The notes beneath the pieces are model-generated. The model was not told where the DNA came from. It made no database searches and saw nothing but the letters and a program-made list of their open reading frames with translations. DNA of 64,000 nucleotides. Source: Phycisphaera sp. (GTDB taxonomy: Bacteria; Planctomycetota; Phycisphaerae; Phycisphaerales; SM1A02). Both the position numbers and the translations under genes were made by a program. Where the stretch lies: NCBI GenBank assembly GCA_016124975.1, contig WGMP01000004.1, positions 248,001-312,000 on the forward strand. The letters run 5' to 3'. Numbering within the stretch: the first letter of the stretch is position 1; the number at the start of each line of letters is the position of its first letter. This document shows positions 42,518-48,143 of this stretch, one piece after another.

Positions 42518-42976
42518 TCAGCTGGCGGTGGTGGTTTCCTTCAGCACGGCCTCGATCTTGCTGCGCGTGACGGTGATCTTGGTGTTCGAGTTCTCGTCGA
42601 CCTTGAGGATCACCACATCGGGCTTGACCTCGACGACGCTGCCGATGATGCCGCCGCTCGTGCGGACCTGATCGTTCTTCTTGATCGAGGCCATCATCTG
42701 CTCGAAGCGCTTCTTCTCACGGCGGCCGCCGAGGATCGTCGAGACGATGAGCGCAAGCAGGATGCCGATGAAGAGGAGCGTGATGAAGTCGAGGCCGCCC
42801 TGCGGCTGCGGCGCCGCGCCGCCTGCCCCGCCGGGAGCGGCCGTGCCGCCCGCGGGCGCGAGAGGCGTGCCCGCGACGGGCGGACCGTCCTGAAGGAGGA
42901 ACGCGGGGAGCGGAGAGGTCGGCAGAGACGCTGCGAGGGCGCCCGTCGTGAGATCGTGTGGCATGGTGGTCGACAT
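42518..42976 (-). CDS. yajC: Preprotein translocase subunit YajC
   Basis: YajC is a small inner-membrane partner of SecDF. The product has one membrane helix (LDFITLLFIGILLALIVSTIL) followed by GGRREKKRFEQMMASIKKNDQVRTSGGIIGSVVEV, shortened here to its key phrases RREKKRFEQMM and NDQVRTSGGIIGSV, and a C-terminal VILKVDENSNTKITVTRSKIEAVL-type beta domain (VILKVDENSNTKITV). The Pro/Gly/Ala-rich N-terminus of about 60 residues is longer than usual. I placed the start at ATG 42976 (152 residues). A GTG at 43015 is possible. Order tgt-yajC-secDF is the classic bacterial arrangement. Confidence 0.92.
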   Translation of the reverse strand: MSTTMPHDLTTGALAASLPTSPLPAFLLQDGPPVAGTPLAPAGGTAAPGGAGGAAPQPQGGLDFITLLFIGILLALIVSTILGGRREKKRFEQMMASIKKNDQVRTSGGIIGSVVEVKPDVVILKVDENSNTKITVTRSKIEAVLKETTTAS

Positions 42977-43024
42977 GGGTGGATTCAGGAACAGCGAAGT
43001 GAAGAGCGAGCGCACGACGCGAAG

Positions 43025-44290
43025 TCAGGCGCGGTCGCCCCCCTCGCCGCGCGCGCCATCCTCCGCGGCCACGGGGGGATCGGCATCGAGCGGCGCGCCC
43101 GCGGATCCCCCGCGCAGCACCGGCCAGCGGCGCTCGAGGTCGAGCCACGCATCATCACGGATTCGTGCCCGTATGTCCACCATGAGGCGTTGGAAGTGGC
43201 GGATGTTGTGGATGCTCAGGAGGGTCGGACCGAGCATCTCGTCAGCCATGAAGAGATGGCGCAGATAACCTCGCGAGAACCCCCCGCCGCACCCCAGGCA
43301 GTCGCAGGCGGGGTCGAGGGGCCCCTTGTCGAGCGCGTGGCAGGCGTTTCGGATCCGAAGCGGGCCCTCGGCGGTGAAGGCGTAGCCCTTCCTCCCGTTC
43401 CGCGTGGGGAGGACGCAGTCGAACATGTCGACCCCCGCGCGGACGGCCTCGAGGATGTCGCGCTCGTAGCCGACGCCCATCAGGTAGCGCGGGCGGTCGG
43501 CCGGCAGGAGCGGTGCGACCGCGCGGACCGTGGCATGGATCTCATCGGGGCTCTCCCCGACCGCCACGCCGCCGATCGCGAAGCCCGGCAGGTCGAAGGC
43601 GCACACCTGCTCGATCGATCGGCGCCTGAGCTCGAGGTCGGTGCCCCCTTGGACGATGCCGAAGAGCCCCTGGTCGGCGCGCGCGTGCGCAGCCACGCAC
43701 CGGCCGAGCCAGCGCGCGGTGCGGTCGATGGCCTCCTCGAGGCGCCTGCGGTGCTCTTCGGGCCTCGAACGGCGCTTGCGCGACATCTGCGGGTCGCTCG
43801 GCGGCGCCTCGGGTGCGCGCGCGGGCGGGCAGTCGTCGAACGCCATGATGATGTCGGCGCCGATCAGGTTCTGCACCTCGATCGAGCGCTCGGGCGTGAG
43901 GAGCAGCCTCGAGCCGTCGATGAACGAGCGGAACTCGACACCTTCCTCGCGCACCTTCGTCCCCTCCGACATCGACCACGCCTGGAAACCGCCCGAGTCG
44001 GTGAGGATGGGGCCGTCCCACCGCATGAACGCGTGCGAGCCGCCGAAGTGCGCCACGCGCTCGGCGGTCGGCCGCAGCATGAGGTGGTAGGCGTTGTTCA
44101 GGATGATCTGCGAGCCCGTCGAGCGGATCTGGTCGGGCGTCAGCCCCTTCATGGTCGCTGCCGTCGCGACGGGCATGAAGGCGGGCGTCTCAAAGGCGCC
44201 GTGCGGCGTCTCGACCGTGCCGAGCCGCGCCGCGCACGAGGCCGAGCGCGCGCGGACCGTGAAGCGGATCGCGTCAGCGCCGCGCGCCAT
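43025..44290 (-). CDS. tgt: tRNA-guanine (queuine-type) transglycosylase
   Basis: Tgt swaps guanine-34 for preQ1 in tRNAs with GUN anticodons. The 421-residue TIM-barrel enzyme has TPAFMPVATAATMKGL, ILNNAYHLMLRP, GPILTDSGGFQAWSM (catalytic Asp), ADIIMAFDDCPP, GIVQGGTDLELRR, GGVAVGESPDEI, LMGVGYERDILEAVRAGVDMFDCVLPTRNGR shown here as VDMFDCVLPTRNGR, and the zinc cluster CDCLGC with a downstream His. WSM replaces the usual FSL near the preQ1 pocket, and an insert with CPPARAPEAPPSD is extra. Its start lies inside the end of the rhomboid gene (17-base overlap). Confidence 0.95.
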   Translation of the reverse strand: MARGADAIRFTVRARSASCAARLGTVETPHGAFETPAFMPVATAATMKGLTPDQIRSTGSQIILNNAYHLMLRPTAERVAHFGGSHAFMRWDGPILTDSGGFQAWSMSEGTKVREEGVEFRSFIDGSRLLLTPERSIEVQNLIGADIIMAFDDCPPARAPEAPPSDPQMSRKRRSRPEEHRRRLEEAIDRTARWLGRCVAAHARADQGLFGIVQGGTDLELRRRSIEQVCAFDLPGFAIGGVAVGESPDEIHATVRAVAPLLPADRPRYLMGVGYERDILEAVRAGVDMFDCVLPTRNGRKGYAFTAEGPLRIRNACHALDKGPLDPACDCLGCGGGFSRGYLRHLFMADEMLGPTLLSIHNIRHFQRLMVDIRARIRDDAWLDLERRWPVLRGGSAGAPLDADPPVAAEDGARGEGGDRA

Positions 44291-45401
44291 CGGGCTTCCT
44301 TCCCGCGTCGGTGGCGTTGCGCAGCGTGGAGCGCTCGCGCTCTGTGAGCGCCCCGAGCCCCTGCTCGCGCACCTTGTCGAGGATGCGGTCGATCTCGCGG
44401 GTGTCCGCGACGCGTGCGGGCCTGAGCCGCCGGCCGAGCAGATCGAAGAAGTCGTCGAGAAGGTGCGGACGGCTCGCGATCCACCACCCCGCGATCGCGC
44501 CCCCGAGGTGCGCGGCCTCGCCGCCCGCGTTCTGCCCGGACGAGAGCAGCGTCCACACCGACAGCCCGATCAGGAAGAGCGCGAGGATGCGCAGCTTGAT
44601 GGGGAGGACGAAGAAGAGCATGATCTCCTCGTCGGGCGCGAGCCACGCCGCAGCGAGGATGATGCCGTAGACGCCCGCGCTCGCTCCGACGAGCGGCGTG
44701 TACGGGTCGCTCGAGAGAAGCCCCGGGATCGAGATGCCGCCTTCGGGCGCGAACGCGATGCCGAGCGCATTCAGGATGAGGAAGAGAAGCGCGCCCGTGA
44801 CCACGCTGAACCCGAAGATCGCAAGGAACCGCCTGCGGCCGAAGCGCTCCTCGACGATGCCTCCGAAGATCCACAGCCCCATCATGTTGAAGAAGAGGTG
44901 CGCGAGCCCCACGTGCAGGAAGCCATATCCGACGAAGCGCCAGAACTGGAGCCCATGCATCGATCCGTCTGGCTCGAGCGAGAAGATCGCCTGCGCCGTC
45001 GTGAACTGGAGCCACGCGCGCAGCGGCGAGACGAGGAGGTACTGCGCCTGCGCGATCGGATCGACCTGCAGCACGAACTCGGCGGGCATCCGCCCGGGAT
45101 AGACGAGGATGATGCCGACGCCCTGCTCGTTTGCGGGAAGTCGCACAGAGGTCGTCTCGCTCCGCGCGCGCCGAATGTCATTGAACGCCTCGACCTGCGC
45201 GGGGTTGACCTTCCACTCGCTGAGCTGGACGGGCACCTTGGGCAGCCGCTCGTCGATGAAGAAGACGAGGCAGCAGATGGCGATCAGGATCGAGTTCGCG
45301 GAGAGCGACCTGAGGCCCGCGAGCGGCGAGCGGCGCATGACGCGCGTGCGCGAACCTTTCGGCGGATTGCTGCGCGAGTAGTCCCTGTCCGAGATTCCCA
45401 T
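44274..45401 (-). CDS. Rhomboid-family intramembrane serine protease with a conserved C-terminal tail
   Basis: The 375-residue membrane protein has HVGLAHLFFNMMGLWIFGG (His168 and Asn172 of the HxxxN motif), the catalytic serine Ser241 in VGASAGVYG, and the catalytic histidine His298 in GEAAHLGGAIAGW. A soluble loop of about 80 residues lies between helix 1 and the core. The last 40 residues form a charged cytosolic tail, EIDRILDKVREQGLGALTER and onward, nearly the same as the tail of the site-2 protease gene immediately upstream. I recall such tails on Bacteroidetes-type rhomboids (DUF6576). The start lies nine bases from a TACACT box. It overlaps tgt by 17 bases. Confidence 0.9.
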   Translation of the reverse strand: MGISDRDYSRSNPPKGSRTRVMRRSPLAGLRSLSANSILIAICCLVFFIDERLPKVPVQLSEWKVNPAQVEAFNDIRRARSETTSVRLPANEQGVGIILVYPGRMPAEFVLQVDPIAQAQYLLVSPLRAWLQFTTAQAIFSLEPDGSMHGLQFWRFVGYGFLHVGLAHLFFNMMGLWIFGGIVEERFGRRRFLAIFGFSVVTGALLFLILNALGIAFAPEGGISIPGLLSSDPYTPLVGASAGVYGIILAAAWLAPDEEIMLFFVLPIKLRILALFLIGLSVWTLLSSGQNAGGEAAHLGGAIAGWWIASRPHLLDDFFDLLGRRLRPARVADTREIDRILDKVREQGLGALTERERSTLRNATDAGRKPDGARR

Positions 45402-45410
45402 CGGGCGCGG

Positions 45411-45416
45411 AGTGTA
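45411..45416 (-). promoter_or_regulatory. Putative -10 box (TACACT) of the rhomboid gene
   Basis: On the minus strand TACACT lies nine bases before the ATG at 45401, giving at most a 2-3 nt leader. It sits in the 49-bp gap after the site-2 protease gene, so rhomboid-tgt-yajC-secDF may have their own start. Confidence 0.3.
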
Positions 45417-45450
45417 GGGACTTCACGCAGGGCCGAAGGCGCCGCGCGCG

Positions 45451-46599
45451 TCAAACTCCGCGATCTCCCTTCGCCCCGCCCGCGCCTCCGTCGCGCTTGC
45501 GCGCCGTCTCGCGCGCGAGCACCTCGCGCTCGGACGCGGTGAGGCTGCCGATGCCCGATCGCGCGATCTTGTCGAGGATCGCGTCGATCTCGGCGTCGGC
45601 GTCGGGCGCGGGTTTCGTCGCACGCGCCGCTTGGCGCGCCGGCTTCGGCTCAGGTTCGCGCTCGGCGGCGAGTTCCTCCTCGAAGGCGGCGAGCTCCGCG
45701 GGGTCGGCCTCGAAGCCGAGCAGATCGCGCTCCTGGTCGATCTGCCGCACCGTGGTGTAGCAGACGATGCCGCCGAAGAGCGCGATCGCGAGAAGCATGG
45801 TGCTGTCCGAGGCGAGCGCCGCGATGCAGAGGATGAGCGCGCCCACGAGGCCGCTGCGGCACGCCGTGCGCATCGATCGGGCATAGCCGCGGCGTCGCCA
45901 GAGGACCGCCTGGAGGATCCTGCCTCCGTCGAGCGGGAACATCGGCAGCAGGTTGAAGACGAGGAGCAGCCACGCGATCGCGTTCGTCAGGAGGACGAGG
46001 ATCTCGAGCCACCCACCGAACGGCTCGGACAGCGCGCCGCCGAAGATCCCGCCCCCCGTCCCGAGCCCTGGGTCGACACGCTGGAACATCTCCCCGAGAT
46101 CGAATGGATCGGGAATGGCGACGCCAAACCAGTGTCCCGTGCGGAGCCCGATGAGCGGCGTGAGCACCGCCATGATGGCGATGTTCACGAGCGGCCCGCC
46201 GAGCGCGGTCCAGAGATGGGCCCGCGGCCGCGCAGGCGGCTCGCACGAGGCGAGCCCGCCGAGCGGCCAGAGCAGCACCTCGTCGGCACGGCCTCCCACG
46301 GCCCTGCACGCCGCGCAGTGGCCGAACTCATGGAGGAGGATCACGCCGAAGAGCGCCCCGAGGCCGAGCAGGGTCGGCGCGAGGCCGAACGCCCCGCCGC
46401 CGCCCGCGGCCGCGGCGCGAGCGATCATCGCGAGCACGAAGACCAGGAAGAAGACATGCAGCCTGACGCTGATCCCTGCGACGCGGAAGATCGGAAACGA
46501 CCACGACATGGGGTCGTTGAAGCTGGGCTTGGTGCCGCGCCAGTCGCCTCCGAAGCCGACGGGCCGCACGCGCTCGTCGGGTTCCTCCCACGCGCTCAT
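45451..46599 (-). CDS. Site-2 protease family (M50) intramembrane zinc metalloprotease with rhomboid-like tail
   Basis: The 382-residue polytopic protein has the zinc motif HEFGH (residues 90-94) in a membrane helix and the third-ligand segment NLLPMFPLDGGRIL (216-229, Asp224), defining the S2P/SpoIVFB-like fold. There is no PDZ domain. Such enzymes cleave membrane-bound regulators or leftover peptides. The charged C-terminal tail starting EIDAILDKIARSGIGSLTAS at residue 337 matches the tail of the neighbouring rhomboid protease, although the two catalytic cores are unrelated. The start at 46599 overlaps the NUDIX stop by four bases. The longer open frame upstream is Arg-rich shadow. Confidence 0.88.
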   Translation of the reverse strand: MSAWEEPDERVRPVGFGGDWRGTKPSFNDPMSWSFPIFRVAGISVRLHVFFLVFVLAMIARAAAAGGGGAFGLAPTLLGLGALFGVILLHEFGHCAACRAVGGRADEVLLWPLGGLASCEPPARPRAHLWTALGGPLVNIAIMAVLTPLIGLRTGHWFGVAIPDPFDLGEMFQRVDPGLGTGGGIFGGALSEPFGGWLEILVLLTNAIAWLLLVFNLLPMFPLDGGRILQAVLWRRRGYARSMRTACRSGLVGALILCIAALASDSTMLLAIALFGGIVCYTTVRQIDQERDLLGFEADPAELAAFEEELAAEREPEPKPARQAARATKPAPDADAEIDAILDKIARSGIGSLTASEREVLARETARKRDGGAGGAKGDRGV

Positions 46600-47198
46600 C
46601 GGCGCACCTCGGCGTCGGCTTCGTCCGAGTCGAACGGAGCCTCGACGGCGAGCCCGATGGGGCGCGACCGCGCAGCGACCGTCCACAGGAGGTAGGCGCC
46701 AAGGGTCTTCCCGTCCTCGACGAGGCCCTGCGCAATCAAGGCTGCGAGTTCGTCCCGCGTCAGGAGCACCACCTCGAGGTCCTCGCCCGGCTCGGGCCTC
46801 GGCGGAACGGGGCGGAGGCCCCACGCAAGGAACACATGCATGCGCTCGTCGGTGAAGCCAGGCGATGTAAAGAACGCGCCAAGGGGTTCGATCGCATCCG
46901 CGCTGTAGCCCGTCTCTTCCTCGAGTTCGCGCAGGGCGGCGGCGCGCGGCTCCTCGCCGCGCTCGAGCTTGCCCGCGCAGAACTCGAGCAGCTGGCGGCC
47001 GACGGCGATCCGCCTGTTCCGCACGAGCACGAGCCTACCGTCGTCGCGGACAGCGACCACGGTCACGGCCCCGGGATGACGCACGACATCCTTGACCACG
47101 GCGCGTCCCGCGGAGGCGGTGGTCCACCGCTCGACCCTGAAGACGGGTCCCTCGTGCGTGACCGTGACTTGCGGTTCGGGTATCACTGCCCCGATCAT
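46596..47198 (-). CDS. NUDIX hydrolase, ADP-ribose pyrophosphatase-like
   Basis: The 200-residue protein carries a complete NUDIX box from Gly76 to Tyr98 (GKLERGEEP, then RELEEETGY), preceded by AVTVVAVRDDGRLVLVRNRR and followed by FFTSPGFTDERMHVFLAW, a pattern typical of ADP-ribose/nucleoside-diphosphate-sugar pyrophosphatases of the NudF type. A helical C-terminal part follows. It would clear toxic or signalling nucleotides. It heads a likely operon with the S2P, rhomboid, tgt, yajC and secDF genes. Its ATG is only six bases from the divergent mlaF ATG and has no visible ribosome site. A TTG/GTG or internal start is possible. Confidence 0.87.
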   Translation of the reverse strand: MIGAVIPEPQVTVTHEGPVFRVERWTTASAGRAVVKDVVRHPGAVTVVAVRDDGRLVLVRNRRIAVGRQLLEFCAGKLERGEEPRAAALRELEEETGYSADAIEPLGAFFTSPGFTDERMHVFLAWGLRPVPPRPEPGEDLEVVLLTRDELAALIAQGLVEDGKTLGAYLLWTVAARSRPIGLAVEAPFDSDEADAEVRR

Positions 47199-47204
47199 AC
47201 TTCG

Positions 47205-48143
47205 ATGCCGACCGCCGAGCGACACTCCCCGCCACCTTCCGCCGCGCCCGATGGGCAGGCCGATGCGCCCGTGCGGGTCGAGGGGCTGGTGAAGAGTTTC
47301 GGCAGGCAGCGCGTCCTCCGCGGCGTCACGCTCTCGTTTCCTCGCGGACGCACGACGGTGGTGCTCGGACCGTCGGGTTGCGGCAAGAGCGTGCTCCTGA
47401 AGCATCTCATCGGTCTCCTGCGGCCCGATGCGGGAAGCGTCCATTACGAAGGCGTGCGGGTGGACCTCCTCTCGGAGCGGAAGCTCGGGGCCGTGCGCCG
47501 CGAGTTCGGGTTCCTGTTCCAGCAGGGCGCGCTCTTCGACTCGATGACGGTGCGGGAGAACATTGCGTTTCCGCTGCGCGAGCTCGAGGGACACGAGAGC
47601 CCGGGCGAGGAGGACCGCGTGCGGCGCGTCCTGCGTCTCGTCGGACTTGAGGAGACCATCGAGAAGTACCCGTCCGAGCTGTCGGGCGGACAGCAGAAGC
47701 GCGTGGCGCTTGCGCGCGCGATCGTCCTCGGCCCAAAGGTCATCCTCTACGACGAGCCGACGACCGGCCTCGACCCGATCCGCTCCGATGTGATCAACGA
47801 ACTGATCCTCAAGCTCGAGCACGAGCTCAAGGTGACGAGCATCGTGGTGACGCACGACCTCGCGAGCGCCTTCAAGGTTGCCGACCACATGGTCATGCTC
47901 CACGAGGGACAGGTCGTCGCCGAGGGAAGCCCCGAGGAATTCCGGGCCTCCACGAATCCCGTGGTGGCACGGTTCCTTCGCGGCGAGGCGAGCGACGACG
48001 AACTGAAGGCGATCCGCGAGGTGACATCCGCGAATGTCGACGCGGCGCGGACGAAGGGCGCGGACGGCTTCGGGGCCCCGCGCAACGATGGCGAGCGCGC
48101 GCCCGGCAAGCGCCGGACGGGTGCAAGTGGAGGTGAATCGTGA
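47205..48143 (+). CDS. mlaF: MlaF-like ABC transporter ATP-binding protein
   Basis: MlaF powers MCE-type phospholipid transport. In this 312-residue protein Walker A is GPSGCGKS (55-62), the Q-loop is FLFQQGALFDSMTVRENIAF, the signature is ELSGGQQKRVALARAI (158-173), Walker B is VILYDEPTTGLDP (179-191), and the H-loop is VVTHDL. FDSMTVRENIAFPLRE is characteristic of MlaF/Ttg2A. A C-terminal extension of about 45 residues (after VVARFLRGEASDDE) is polar and basic. The gene overlaps mlaD (GTGA) and lacks an adjacent mlaE; the permease is at 32726. Confidence 0.93.
   Translation: MPTAERHSPPPSAAPDGQADAPVRVEGLVKSFGRQRVLRGVTLSFPRGRTTVVLGPSGCGKSVLLKHLIGLLRPDAGSVHYEGVRVDLLSERKLGAVRREFGFLFQQGALFDSMTVRENIAFPLRELEGHESPGEEDRVRRVLRLVGLEETIEKYPSELSGGQQKRVALARAIVLGPKVILYDEPTTGLDPIRSDVINELILKLEHELKVTSIVVTHDLASAFKVADHMVMLHEGQVVAEGSPEEFRASTNPVVARFLRGEASDDELKAIREVTSANVDAARTKGADGFGAPRNDGERAPGKRRTGASGGES

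What the first reader, a model, noticed from the sequence alone, without database searches (positions are those of the whole stretch)
44277..45591. Two unrelated intramembrane proteases, side by side, share the same C-terminal tail
The rhomboid protease (44274-45401) and the site-2 metalloprotease (45451-46599) have no fold or mechanism in common. Yet from residue 336 and residue 337 respectively both end in a segment of the pattern EIDxILDK-x4-GxGxLTxxER-x2-L, followed by a short polar end. The rhomboid form resembles the DUF6576-type tail I recall from Bacteroidetes rhomboids; on a site-2 protease I do not know it. A shared cytosolic tail next to each active-site core suggests a common docking partner, quality-control adaptor or degradation signal that couples the two proteases. 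A gene-local recombination copying the tail from one to the other is also possible. Adjacent NUDIX, tgt and yajC-secDF genes put both at an export/membrane-protein hub.
Basis: partly seen in the sequence, partly recalled or inferred. Interest (0 to 1): 0.72.

Follow-up and report, generated by a model that had tools for sequence, protein, structure and literature searches.

The report
Shared tail on two intramembrane proteases
Two unrelated proteases that cut proteins inside the cell membrane carry the same small helical tail throughout a bacterial phylum, which suggests a common docking device that brings different membrane-clearing machines to one partner.

Summary
The rhomboid (44274-45401, minus) and the site-2 protease (S2P, 45451-46599, minus) both end in Pfam PF20216/DUF6576, 32.5 and 35.1 bits against a cut-off of 27.3, the genome's only two matches. 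An HMM of 64 rhomboid tails from records not titled as planctomycetes matches 82 of 83 tail-bearing S2Ps and 0 of 36 others; reversed and shuffled controls give 0. The tail is better conserved than the protease core and predicted as a two-helix hairpin on both. Recent local copying is not supported: tailed S2Ps occur in 30 families of the phylum. In the 142 loci classified from other phyla the carriers are rhomboids. Best reading: a docking module for a shared cytosolic partner, probably in membrane-protein or signal-peptide clearance. Partner unknown, function untested.

The parts
44274..45401 (-). Rhomboid intramembrane serine protease, 375 aa, GASAG and HLGG catalytic motifs, DUF6576 at the C-terminus
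   Evidence: Pfam PF01694 88.4 bits and PF20216 32.5 bits; Foldseek best matches are GlpG structures
44301..44402 (-). DUF6576 tail of the rhomboid, residues 334-367: two helices (334-347, 354-367)
   Evidence: AlphaFold2, block pLDDT 81, 95, 91 and 72 over residues 331-370
45451..46599 (-). Site-2 (M50) intramembrane metalloprotease, 382 aa, HEFGH and LDGGR, DUF6576 at the C-terminus
   Evidence: Pfam PF02163 60.7 bits and PF20216 35.1 bits; Foldseek best matches 3b4r (mjS2P) and 8vjm/8vjl (SpoIVFB)
45601..45717 (-). Poorly conserved linker between S2P core and tail (residues 295-333)
   Evidence: block pLDDT 45-52 over residues 291-330; mean pairwise identity 0.187 against 0.368 for the core and 0.476 for the tail in 27 relatives
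45484..45600 (-). DUF6576 tail of the S2P, residues 334-372: two helices (334-348, 355-372)
   Evidence: AlphaFold2, block pLDDT 70, 85, 81 and 76 over residues 331-370
46596..47903 (-). NUDIX hydrolase gene upstream in the same run of genes (true start probably inside this ORF)
   Evidence: Pfam PF00293 68.9 bits; a match lies upstream of the pair or the rhomboid in many of the 41 loci tracked
43025..44290 (-). tgt (tRNA-guanine transglycosylase), overlapping the rhomboid's end
   Evidence: Pfam PF01702 462 bits; downstream on the same strand in 37 of 41 loci
42518..43015 (-). yajC, Sec translocon accessory subunit
   Evidence: Pfam PF02699 58.8 bits
38926..42492 (-). secDF fusion
   Evidence: NCBIfam TIGR01129 304 bits and TIGR00966 250 bits, both over cut-off

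Best explanation
DUF6576 is a small cytosolic helical hairpin on a flexible leash. It docks its bearer onto a shared cytosolic partner, so that a rhomboid and an S2P, which have different folds and chemistries, work at the same place on membrane-embedded segments: orphan or misfolded helices, or left-over signal peptides. Shown here: the tail is homologous on both, conserved more than the catalytic core, predicted as a hairpin behind a weakly conserved linker, phylum-wide on S2P with few changes of state, kept in members that lack the catalytic motif, absent from the rhomboid in one genus where the neighbouring S2P has it, and also found on an SRP signal-peptide-binding domain. Inferred: that it lies in the cytosol (six-TM topology of the two folds, recalled, and the SpoIVFB CBS position), that it binds another protein, and that the pathway is membrane-protein or signal-peptide clearance. 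The identity of the partner is not known.
For: Tail homology with controls. Conservation core 0.368, linker 0.187, tail 0.476. Hairpin models. Tail state changes only 3 times on a tree of 118 S2P cores. Six tail-bearing S2Ps lack HExxH, five of 83 in one set plus L338; in L070, L068 and L338 the rhomboid next door keeps its GxSx and HxGG motifs. 15 of 200 tail-bearing rhomboid-family cores lack both the Ser and His motifs (loose patterns). In G064 and G093 (one genus) the rhomboid just upstream (9 bp from its stop to the S2P's first ATG) lacks the tail and the S2P has it; each genome has one DUF6576 match, shown to be the S2P's in G093, its place not listed for G064. A stand-alone SRP M domain carries the tail in 7 of 7 such genomes of one family by my HMM. 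Of three tail-less S2P relatives scanned, two carry CBS domains in the same place; in SpoIVFB the linker binds substrate and the cytosolic CBS domain probably positions that linker (PMC11486902, passages). tgt-yajC-secDF lie downstream in most of 41 loci. E. coli RseP, an S2P, removes remnant signal peptides (PMC10470546, abstract and passages); rhomboid YqgP hands substrates to FtsH and needs its cytosolic domain for it (PMC7231995, abstract and passages).
Against: No partner is identified and no interaction was modelled. In the loci classified from other phyla the tail is on rhomboids alone, so it cannot exist chiefly to pair rhomboid with S2P. Outside the window's order no tailed S2P had a rhomboid in its fetched stretch; 37 of the 56 tailed S2Ps without a neighbouring rhomboid had at least 1 kb on both sides. 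Neighbours of the tailed rhomboid in Gemmatimonadota (EF-G), Ignavibacteria (PGK) and Mucilaginibacter (MutL) are unrelated to Sec. Conservation and a flexible leash would also fit a degron or an intramolecular regulator. The missing tail on the rhomboid is seen in two genomes of one genus, probably one event.
Confidence: 0.55

Rival explanations
1. The hairpins bind each other: rhomboid tail and S2P tail form a four-helix bundle that clamps the two proteases into one complex, and rhomboid tails alone form homodimers.
For: Adjacent co-oriented genes, both tails in 25 of 27 adjacent pairs; a hairpin is suited to bundle formation; tandem tailed rhomboids (L072) and tandem tailed S2Ps (L107).
Against: In G064/G093 only one of the pair has a tail. 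Outside the order, tailed S2Ps had no rhomboid in the fetched stretch. For the comparable SHOCT module, an experiment did not support oligomerisation (PMC3581485, abstract and passages).
Confidence: 0.2
2. The tail is an intramolecular regulator: it folds back on the core or linker to gate the active site or hold substrate, as the linker, helped by the CBS domain, does in SpoIVFB.
For: It takes the place of CBS domains on homologous S2P cores. In SpoIVFB the linker binds substrate (PMC11486902, passages).
Against: The same hairpin sits on unrelated folds (rhomboid, S2P, SRP M domain) and on catalytically broken members, so a fit to one active site is unlikely. The linker is weakly conserved.
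Confidence: 0.1
3. The tail is a degron or turnover tag recognised by a cytosolic protease, so both intramembrane proteases are kept at low level together.
For: Near-C-terminal, short, shared by membrane enzymes that could be harmful in excess (inference).
Against: In some carriers the motif ends 31-39 residues before the stop (L027, L032); conservation is spread over the hairpin rather than at the extreme C-terminus; members without the catalytic motif keep it.
Confidence: 0.1
4. A gene-local copy of the rhomboid tail onto the neighbouring S2P, with no shared function.
For: The genes are adjacent and in the same direction in the window's order. Within-pair identity is slightly higher, p 0.06.
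Against: No excess by BLOSUM score (p 0.36), and 17 or 18 of 25 S2P tails (by identity or BLOSUM) have another genome's S2P tail as nearest tail. Tailed S2Ps occur in 25 families outside the order with no rhomboid in the fetched stretch. 3 changes on the tree.
Confidence: 0.05

Closest known systems
PF20216 DUF6576 on bacterial rhomboid proteases
   Same: The tail family itself. Here on rhomboids of records titled Bacteroidota groups, Ignavibacteria, Verrucomicrobia, Lentisphaerae, Gemmatimonadota and Planctomycetota. Pfam calls it a family of unknown function.
   Different: In Planctomycetota it also sits on S2P proteases and, in one family, on a stand-alone SRP M domain. No paper in the held library contains DUF6576 or PF20216.
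SpoIVFB / mjS2P group of S2P proteases with C-terminal CBS domains
   Same: Same six-TM metalloprotease fold, and an accessory module after TM6.
   Different: DUF6576 hairpin in place of the CBS domain, on a weakly conserved leash.
SHOCT domain (PF09851)
   Same: Short, mostly C-terminal two-helix module found on unrelated proteins, function unknown (PMC3581485, abstract and passages).
   Different: No Pfam cross-match: four tails scanned to E 10 hit DUF6576 and, weakly and for one tail only, two HTH families. The profile comparison used one SHOCT sequence only (probability 2.4%), so it is uninformative.
YqgP (rhomboid adaptor of FtsH)
   Same: A rhomboid whose cytosolic extramembrane domain is needed for an adaptor role that does not need catalysis (PMC7231995, abstract and passages).
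   Different: YqgP uses an N-terminal domain with another fold; its C-terminal domain is extracellular TPR.

Membership tests
DUF6576 (PF20216) | Profile score over the curated cut-off (27.3 bits) | tested here: met
   Rhomboid 32.5 bits, S2P 35.1 bits
DUF6576 (PF20216) | C-terminal position | tested here: met
   The motif ends 15 (rhomboid) and 21 (S2P) residues before the stop. That the position defines the family is recalled
Rhomboid protease (PF01694) | Rhomboid fold with GxSG-type serine and HxGG histidine | tested here: met
   G239-A240-S241 and H298 invariant in 17 sequences; GlpG match
Site-2 protease (M50) | HExxH on a TM helix plus LDGGR-type Asp | tested here: met
   H90, E91, H94, D224 invariant in 27 aligned cores; mjS2P match E 1.4e-10
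SpoIVFB-type S2P | C-terminal CBS domain | tested here: not met
   No CBS hit in the window S2P at E<=1; DUF6576 instead
SHOCT (PF09851) | Profile match | tested here: not met
   No SHOCT hit for four tails at E<=10 (HMMER's filters drop most matches above about 0.1)
SHOCT (PF09851) | Distant profile-profile relation | tested here: inconclusive
   Only one SHOCT sequence was recovered for hhalign
FtsH-adaptor rhomboid | Binds FtsH or another degradative protease | not testable with these tools
   No interaction data

The most novel reading that the evidence does not exclude
DUF6576 is the address tag of an undescribed membrane-clearance complex at the Sec/SRP exit. A single cytosolic hub captures any effector that bears the hairpin: rhomboid, S2P, their pseudoprotease forms, or a signal-peptide-binding M domain. 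Freshly released signal peptides and orphan helices are thus met by two different protease chemistries at the translocon, and one tag in the complex can serve two partners.
Probability: 0.2. Interest if true: 0.85.

Novelty: new variant of a known kind. Interest (0 to 1): 0.6.

Why it matters
How bacteria bring intramembrane proteases to their substrates, and how they clear signal peptides and orphan helices, is largely open outside E. coli and Bacillus (recalled). A short portable tag shared by two unrelated intramembrane proteases and an SRP M domain gives a direct handle: one pull-down with a 34-residue bait could identify the common partner across several phyla. It also turns a domain of unknown function, present in 354 of 392 sampled genomes of this phylum and 100 of 101 sampled Gemmatimonadota, into a testable module.

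Tried and rejected
Recent local copying of the tail between the neighbours was tested and not supported. Chance similarity was rejected. The idea that tailed S2P needs an adjacent rhomboid was rejected: 56 of 83 tailed S2Ps had no rhomboid in the fetched stretch; of these, 37 had at least 1 kb and 21 at least 2.5 kb on both sides. A general Sec-operon link was looked for in other phyla. It was found in 12 of 17 loci that I place in Bacteroidales (by title; family placements recalled), where SecDF lies 1.2-1.4 kb downstream of the tailed rhomboid by phmmer (two confirmed by NCBIfam). Of the other five, L331, L339 and L362 end within 1.5 kb, while L323 and L334 run on without it. It was not found among ten neighbouring proteins of five loci from Gemmatimonadota, Ignavibacteria, Verrucomicrobiia and Mucilaginibacter. 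SHOCT kinship could not be tested properly. The S2P alignment A1 and tail alignment A2 were too diverse for the named-genome scan, so that scan used five close tails and leans towards rhomboids. The Pfam-based searches do not, but I classified only part of their matches, and Bacteroidota were not sampled phylum-wide. L463, a sub-cut-off Verrucomicrobiota match in a coiled-coil protein, was set aside as spurious.

Dropped rows and biases: the S2P set (119 rows, 83 tailed, 36 not) is not a random sample. Its seeds were tail-bearing, and I chose which matches to fetch. L208, cut by its locus end, counts as tail-less but was left out of the trees (118 rows). Pseudo-enzyme counts rest on simple patterns: L206 and L293 fail only the second S2P motif, and L111 was wrongly flagged as lacking Ser. 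In one search, four genomes outside the family f26 (G121, G241, G267, G297) also had two SRP matches; I did not examine them.
Full report
WHAT IS THERE. The window holds, on the minus strand, a run NUDIX - S2P - rhomboid - tgt - yajC - secDF. The rhomboid (375 aa) and the S2P (382 aa) both end in Pfam DUF6576, 32.5 and 35.1 bits against a curated cut-off of 27.3. Those are the only two DUF6576 matches at E<=0.001 in the 3.6 Mb genome. The tails align with 14 of 25 identities.

MORE THAN CHANCE. I built an HMM from 64 rhomboid tails of records not titled as planctomycetes (three of the 65 such loci are titled only 'bacterium') and searched S2P proteins with it. It found 82 of 83 tail-bearing S2Ps at E<=0.001 (median 31.8 bits; window S2P 38.2 bits), 0 of 36 S2Ps classed as tail-less, and 0 of 119 with the C-terminus reversed or shuffled. 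In 27 S2Ps that neighbour a rhomboid, mean pairwise column identity is 0.368 in the core, 0.187 in the linker and 0.476 in the tail: selection holds the tail harder than the enzyme.

DISTRIBUTION. 99 of 101 close relatives, own genome included, and 354 of 392 genomes drawn across the phylum have DUF6576. Of 20 relatives with two copies that I fetched, 19 have adjacent tailed S2P and tailed rhomboid, and one (L072) has two tailed rhomboids. 20 relatives with one copy have a tailed rhomboid and no S2P in the fetched stretch. Of these 20, 14 are listed without an S2P of this type anywhere at E<=1e-15, five (G065, G069, G085, G088, G096) have one elsewhere without a tail, and G091 is not among the matches shown. 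Across the phylum, tailed S2Ps appear in 25 families outside the window's order plus 5 within it. None of those outside the order had a rhomboid in the fetched stretch; of all 56 tailed S2Ps without a neighbouring rhomboid, 37 had at least 1 kb on both sides. Outside Planctomycetota I classified 142 loci (65, 27, 50; two, L402 and L438, are re-fetches). 140 carry the tail on a rhomboid, one is a short fragment (L337) and one looks spurious (L463); none is an S2P. These are part of the matches, and Bacteroidota were not sampled phylum-wide. So the rhomboid tail is shared by several phyla, and the S2P tail is a planctomycete feature as far as I looked.

HISTORY. On a maximum-likelihood tree of 118 S2P cores the tail state changes 3 times (shuffled mean 30.6). 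Of the 36 S2Ps classed as tail-less, 13 have under 45 residues after the core, 7 have 45-109 and 16 have 110 or more; Pfam on three of them finds CBS domains in two. Within 25 pairs with both tails, an S2P tail is hardly closer to its neighbour's tail than to rhomboid tails of other genomes (identity 0.409 v 0.392, p 0.06; BLOSUM p 0.36), and for 17 or 18 of 25 the nearest tail is another genome's S2P tail. Recent local copying is therefore unsupported. The original transfer, probably in an early planctomycete, cannot be dated with 34 residues.

STRUCTURE. AlphaFold2 gives a two-helix hairpin on both: S2P 334-348 and 355-372 after a low-confidence linker (mean pLDDT 73.1, 7 sequences); rhomboid 334-347 and 354-367 (mean pLDDT 85.4, 17 sequences). 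The cores match mjS2P and SpoIVFB and GlpG. Both folds should put the C-terminus in the cytosol: for SpoIVFB the CBS domain after TM6 lies beneath the cytosolic side (PMC11486902, passages); for GlpG-type six-TM rhomboids this is recalled.

CLUES TO FUNCTION. First, the tail outlives catalysis. Six tailed S2Ps (L070, L068, L126, L050, L160, L338) have no HExxH. Three of them (L070, L068, L338) stand next to a rhomboid that keeps its GxSx and HxGG motifs. 15 of 200 tailed rhomboid-family cores lack both active-site motifs by a loose pattern. Second, in G064 and G093, two species of one genus, the order is rhomboid (no tail) - S2P (tail), with 9 bp from the rhomboid's stop to the S2P's first ATG. 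Each genome has one DUF6576 match at E<=0.01; in G093 its place is the S2P tail, for G064 the place was not listed. One tail may serve the pair. Third, in one planctomycete family (f26) a stand-alone SRP M domain carries the tail in 7 of 7 genomes by my HMM. In the one protein compared with the full-length Ffh model, only Ffh positions 327-427 are matched, with no GTPase domain. Of the seven, 4 pass Pfam's cut-off in the genome-level search and two score below it (G259 25.7, G229 20.0 bits); G213 was not in that search and its protein had no Pfam DUF6576 hit. Four other genomes with two SRP matches were not examined. All three bearers handle hydrophobic segments: rhomboid and S2P cut them, and the M domain binds signal peptides.

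CONTEXT. I tracked seven gene types in 41 Phycisphaerales loci. In 37 of them tgt follows the pair, or the rhomboid alone, on the same strand (35 also show yajC and secDF; L059 and L088 run out; in L066 tgt is 1.35 kb away). Exceptions are L091, L092, L095 and L096. In 12 of 17 loci that I place in Bacteroidales a SecDF match follows the tailed rhomboid at 1.2-1.4 kb (two confirmed). Against a general link, tailed rhomboids elsewhere neighbour EF-G, PGK or MutL.

MECHANISM. I favour docking: a cytosolic hairpin on a leash that brings different membrane-segment handlers to one partner (0.55). The literature makes the job plausible: RseP, an S2P, clears remnant signal peptides (PMC10470546, abstract and passages), and rhomboid YqgP acts as an adaptor for FtsH and needs its cytosolic domain for that (PMC7231995, abstract and passages). 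A review of rhomboids (PMC12615303, term search and passages) mentions accessory domains such as ubiquitin-binding motifs and EF-hands; the terms site-2 and Planctomycet do not occur in its main text. Direct tail-tail clasping (0.2), intramolecular gating (0.1) and a degron (0.1) remain.

NOVELTY. The tail family is in Pfam, and because the S2P passes the cut-off this architecture may already be listed there; I could not see. No paper of the held library contains DUF6576 or PF20216, and none holds site-2 protease, rhomboid and Planctomycetes together. Subscription journals are mostly not held. I call it a new variant of a known kind. Its interest lies in the sharing between unrelated intramembrane proteases, which opens a simple test for the partner.

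Noticed in passing
L375:2583-3227(+), L376:2863-3633(-), L377:2611-3201(+), L378:2356-3141(+), L379, L380, L381: SRP54 M-domain (SRP_SPB) proteins that appear to stand alone without a GTPase domain, in one planctomycete family, with a DUF6576 tail by my HMM; in 4 of 7 genomes within 3 kb of a second SRP match, taken to be ffh.
   Followed up: partly
L228:4013-5929(+), L232:3888-5696(+): Rhomboid without the tail followed, 9 bp after its stop, by an S2P with the tail; each genome has one DUF6576 match.
   Followed up: yes
L338:2007-3134(+), L070:10340-11566(-), L068:7823-8935(-), L126, L050, L160: S2P-like proteins without HExxH that keep the DUF6576 tail.
   Followed up: partly
L135:4031-5077(-), L147:2047-2922(-), L153:3151-4122(+), L154:3191-4138(+): Strongly diverged rhomboid-like membrane proteins, apparently without the catalytic serine, with a DUF6576 tail. 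L154 has no Pfam rhomboid match.
   Followed up: partly
L107/L132:2478-4843(+): Two tandem tailed S2P genes in one genome.
   Followed up: no
L289, L307, L308, L310, L315, L320, L324, L327, L340, L346, L349, L367: In these Bacteroidales loci the tailed rhomboid gene is followed 1.2-1.4 kb downstream by a SecDF match; in L367 the gene between weakly matches exonuclease/endonuclease models, below their cut-offs.
   Followed up: partly
L297, L306, L311, L317, L328, L330, L335, L336, L339, L342, L350, L352, L358, L361, L362: In these loci, most titled Bacteroidota groups, two tandem rhomboid genes occur, the first without and the second with the tail.
   Followed up: no
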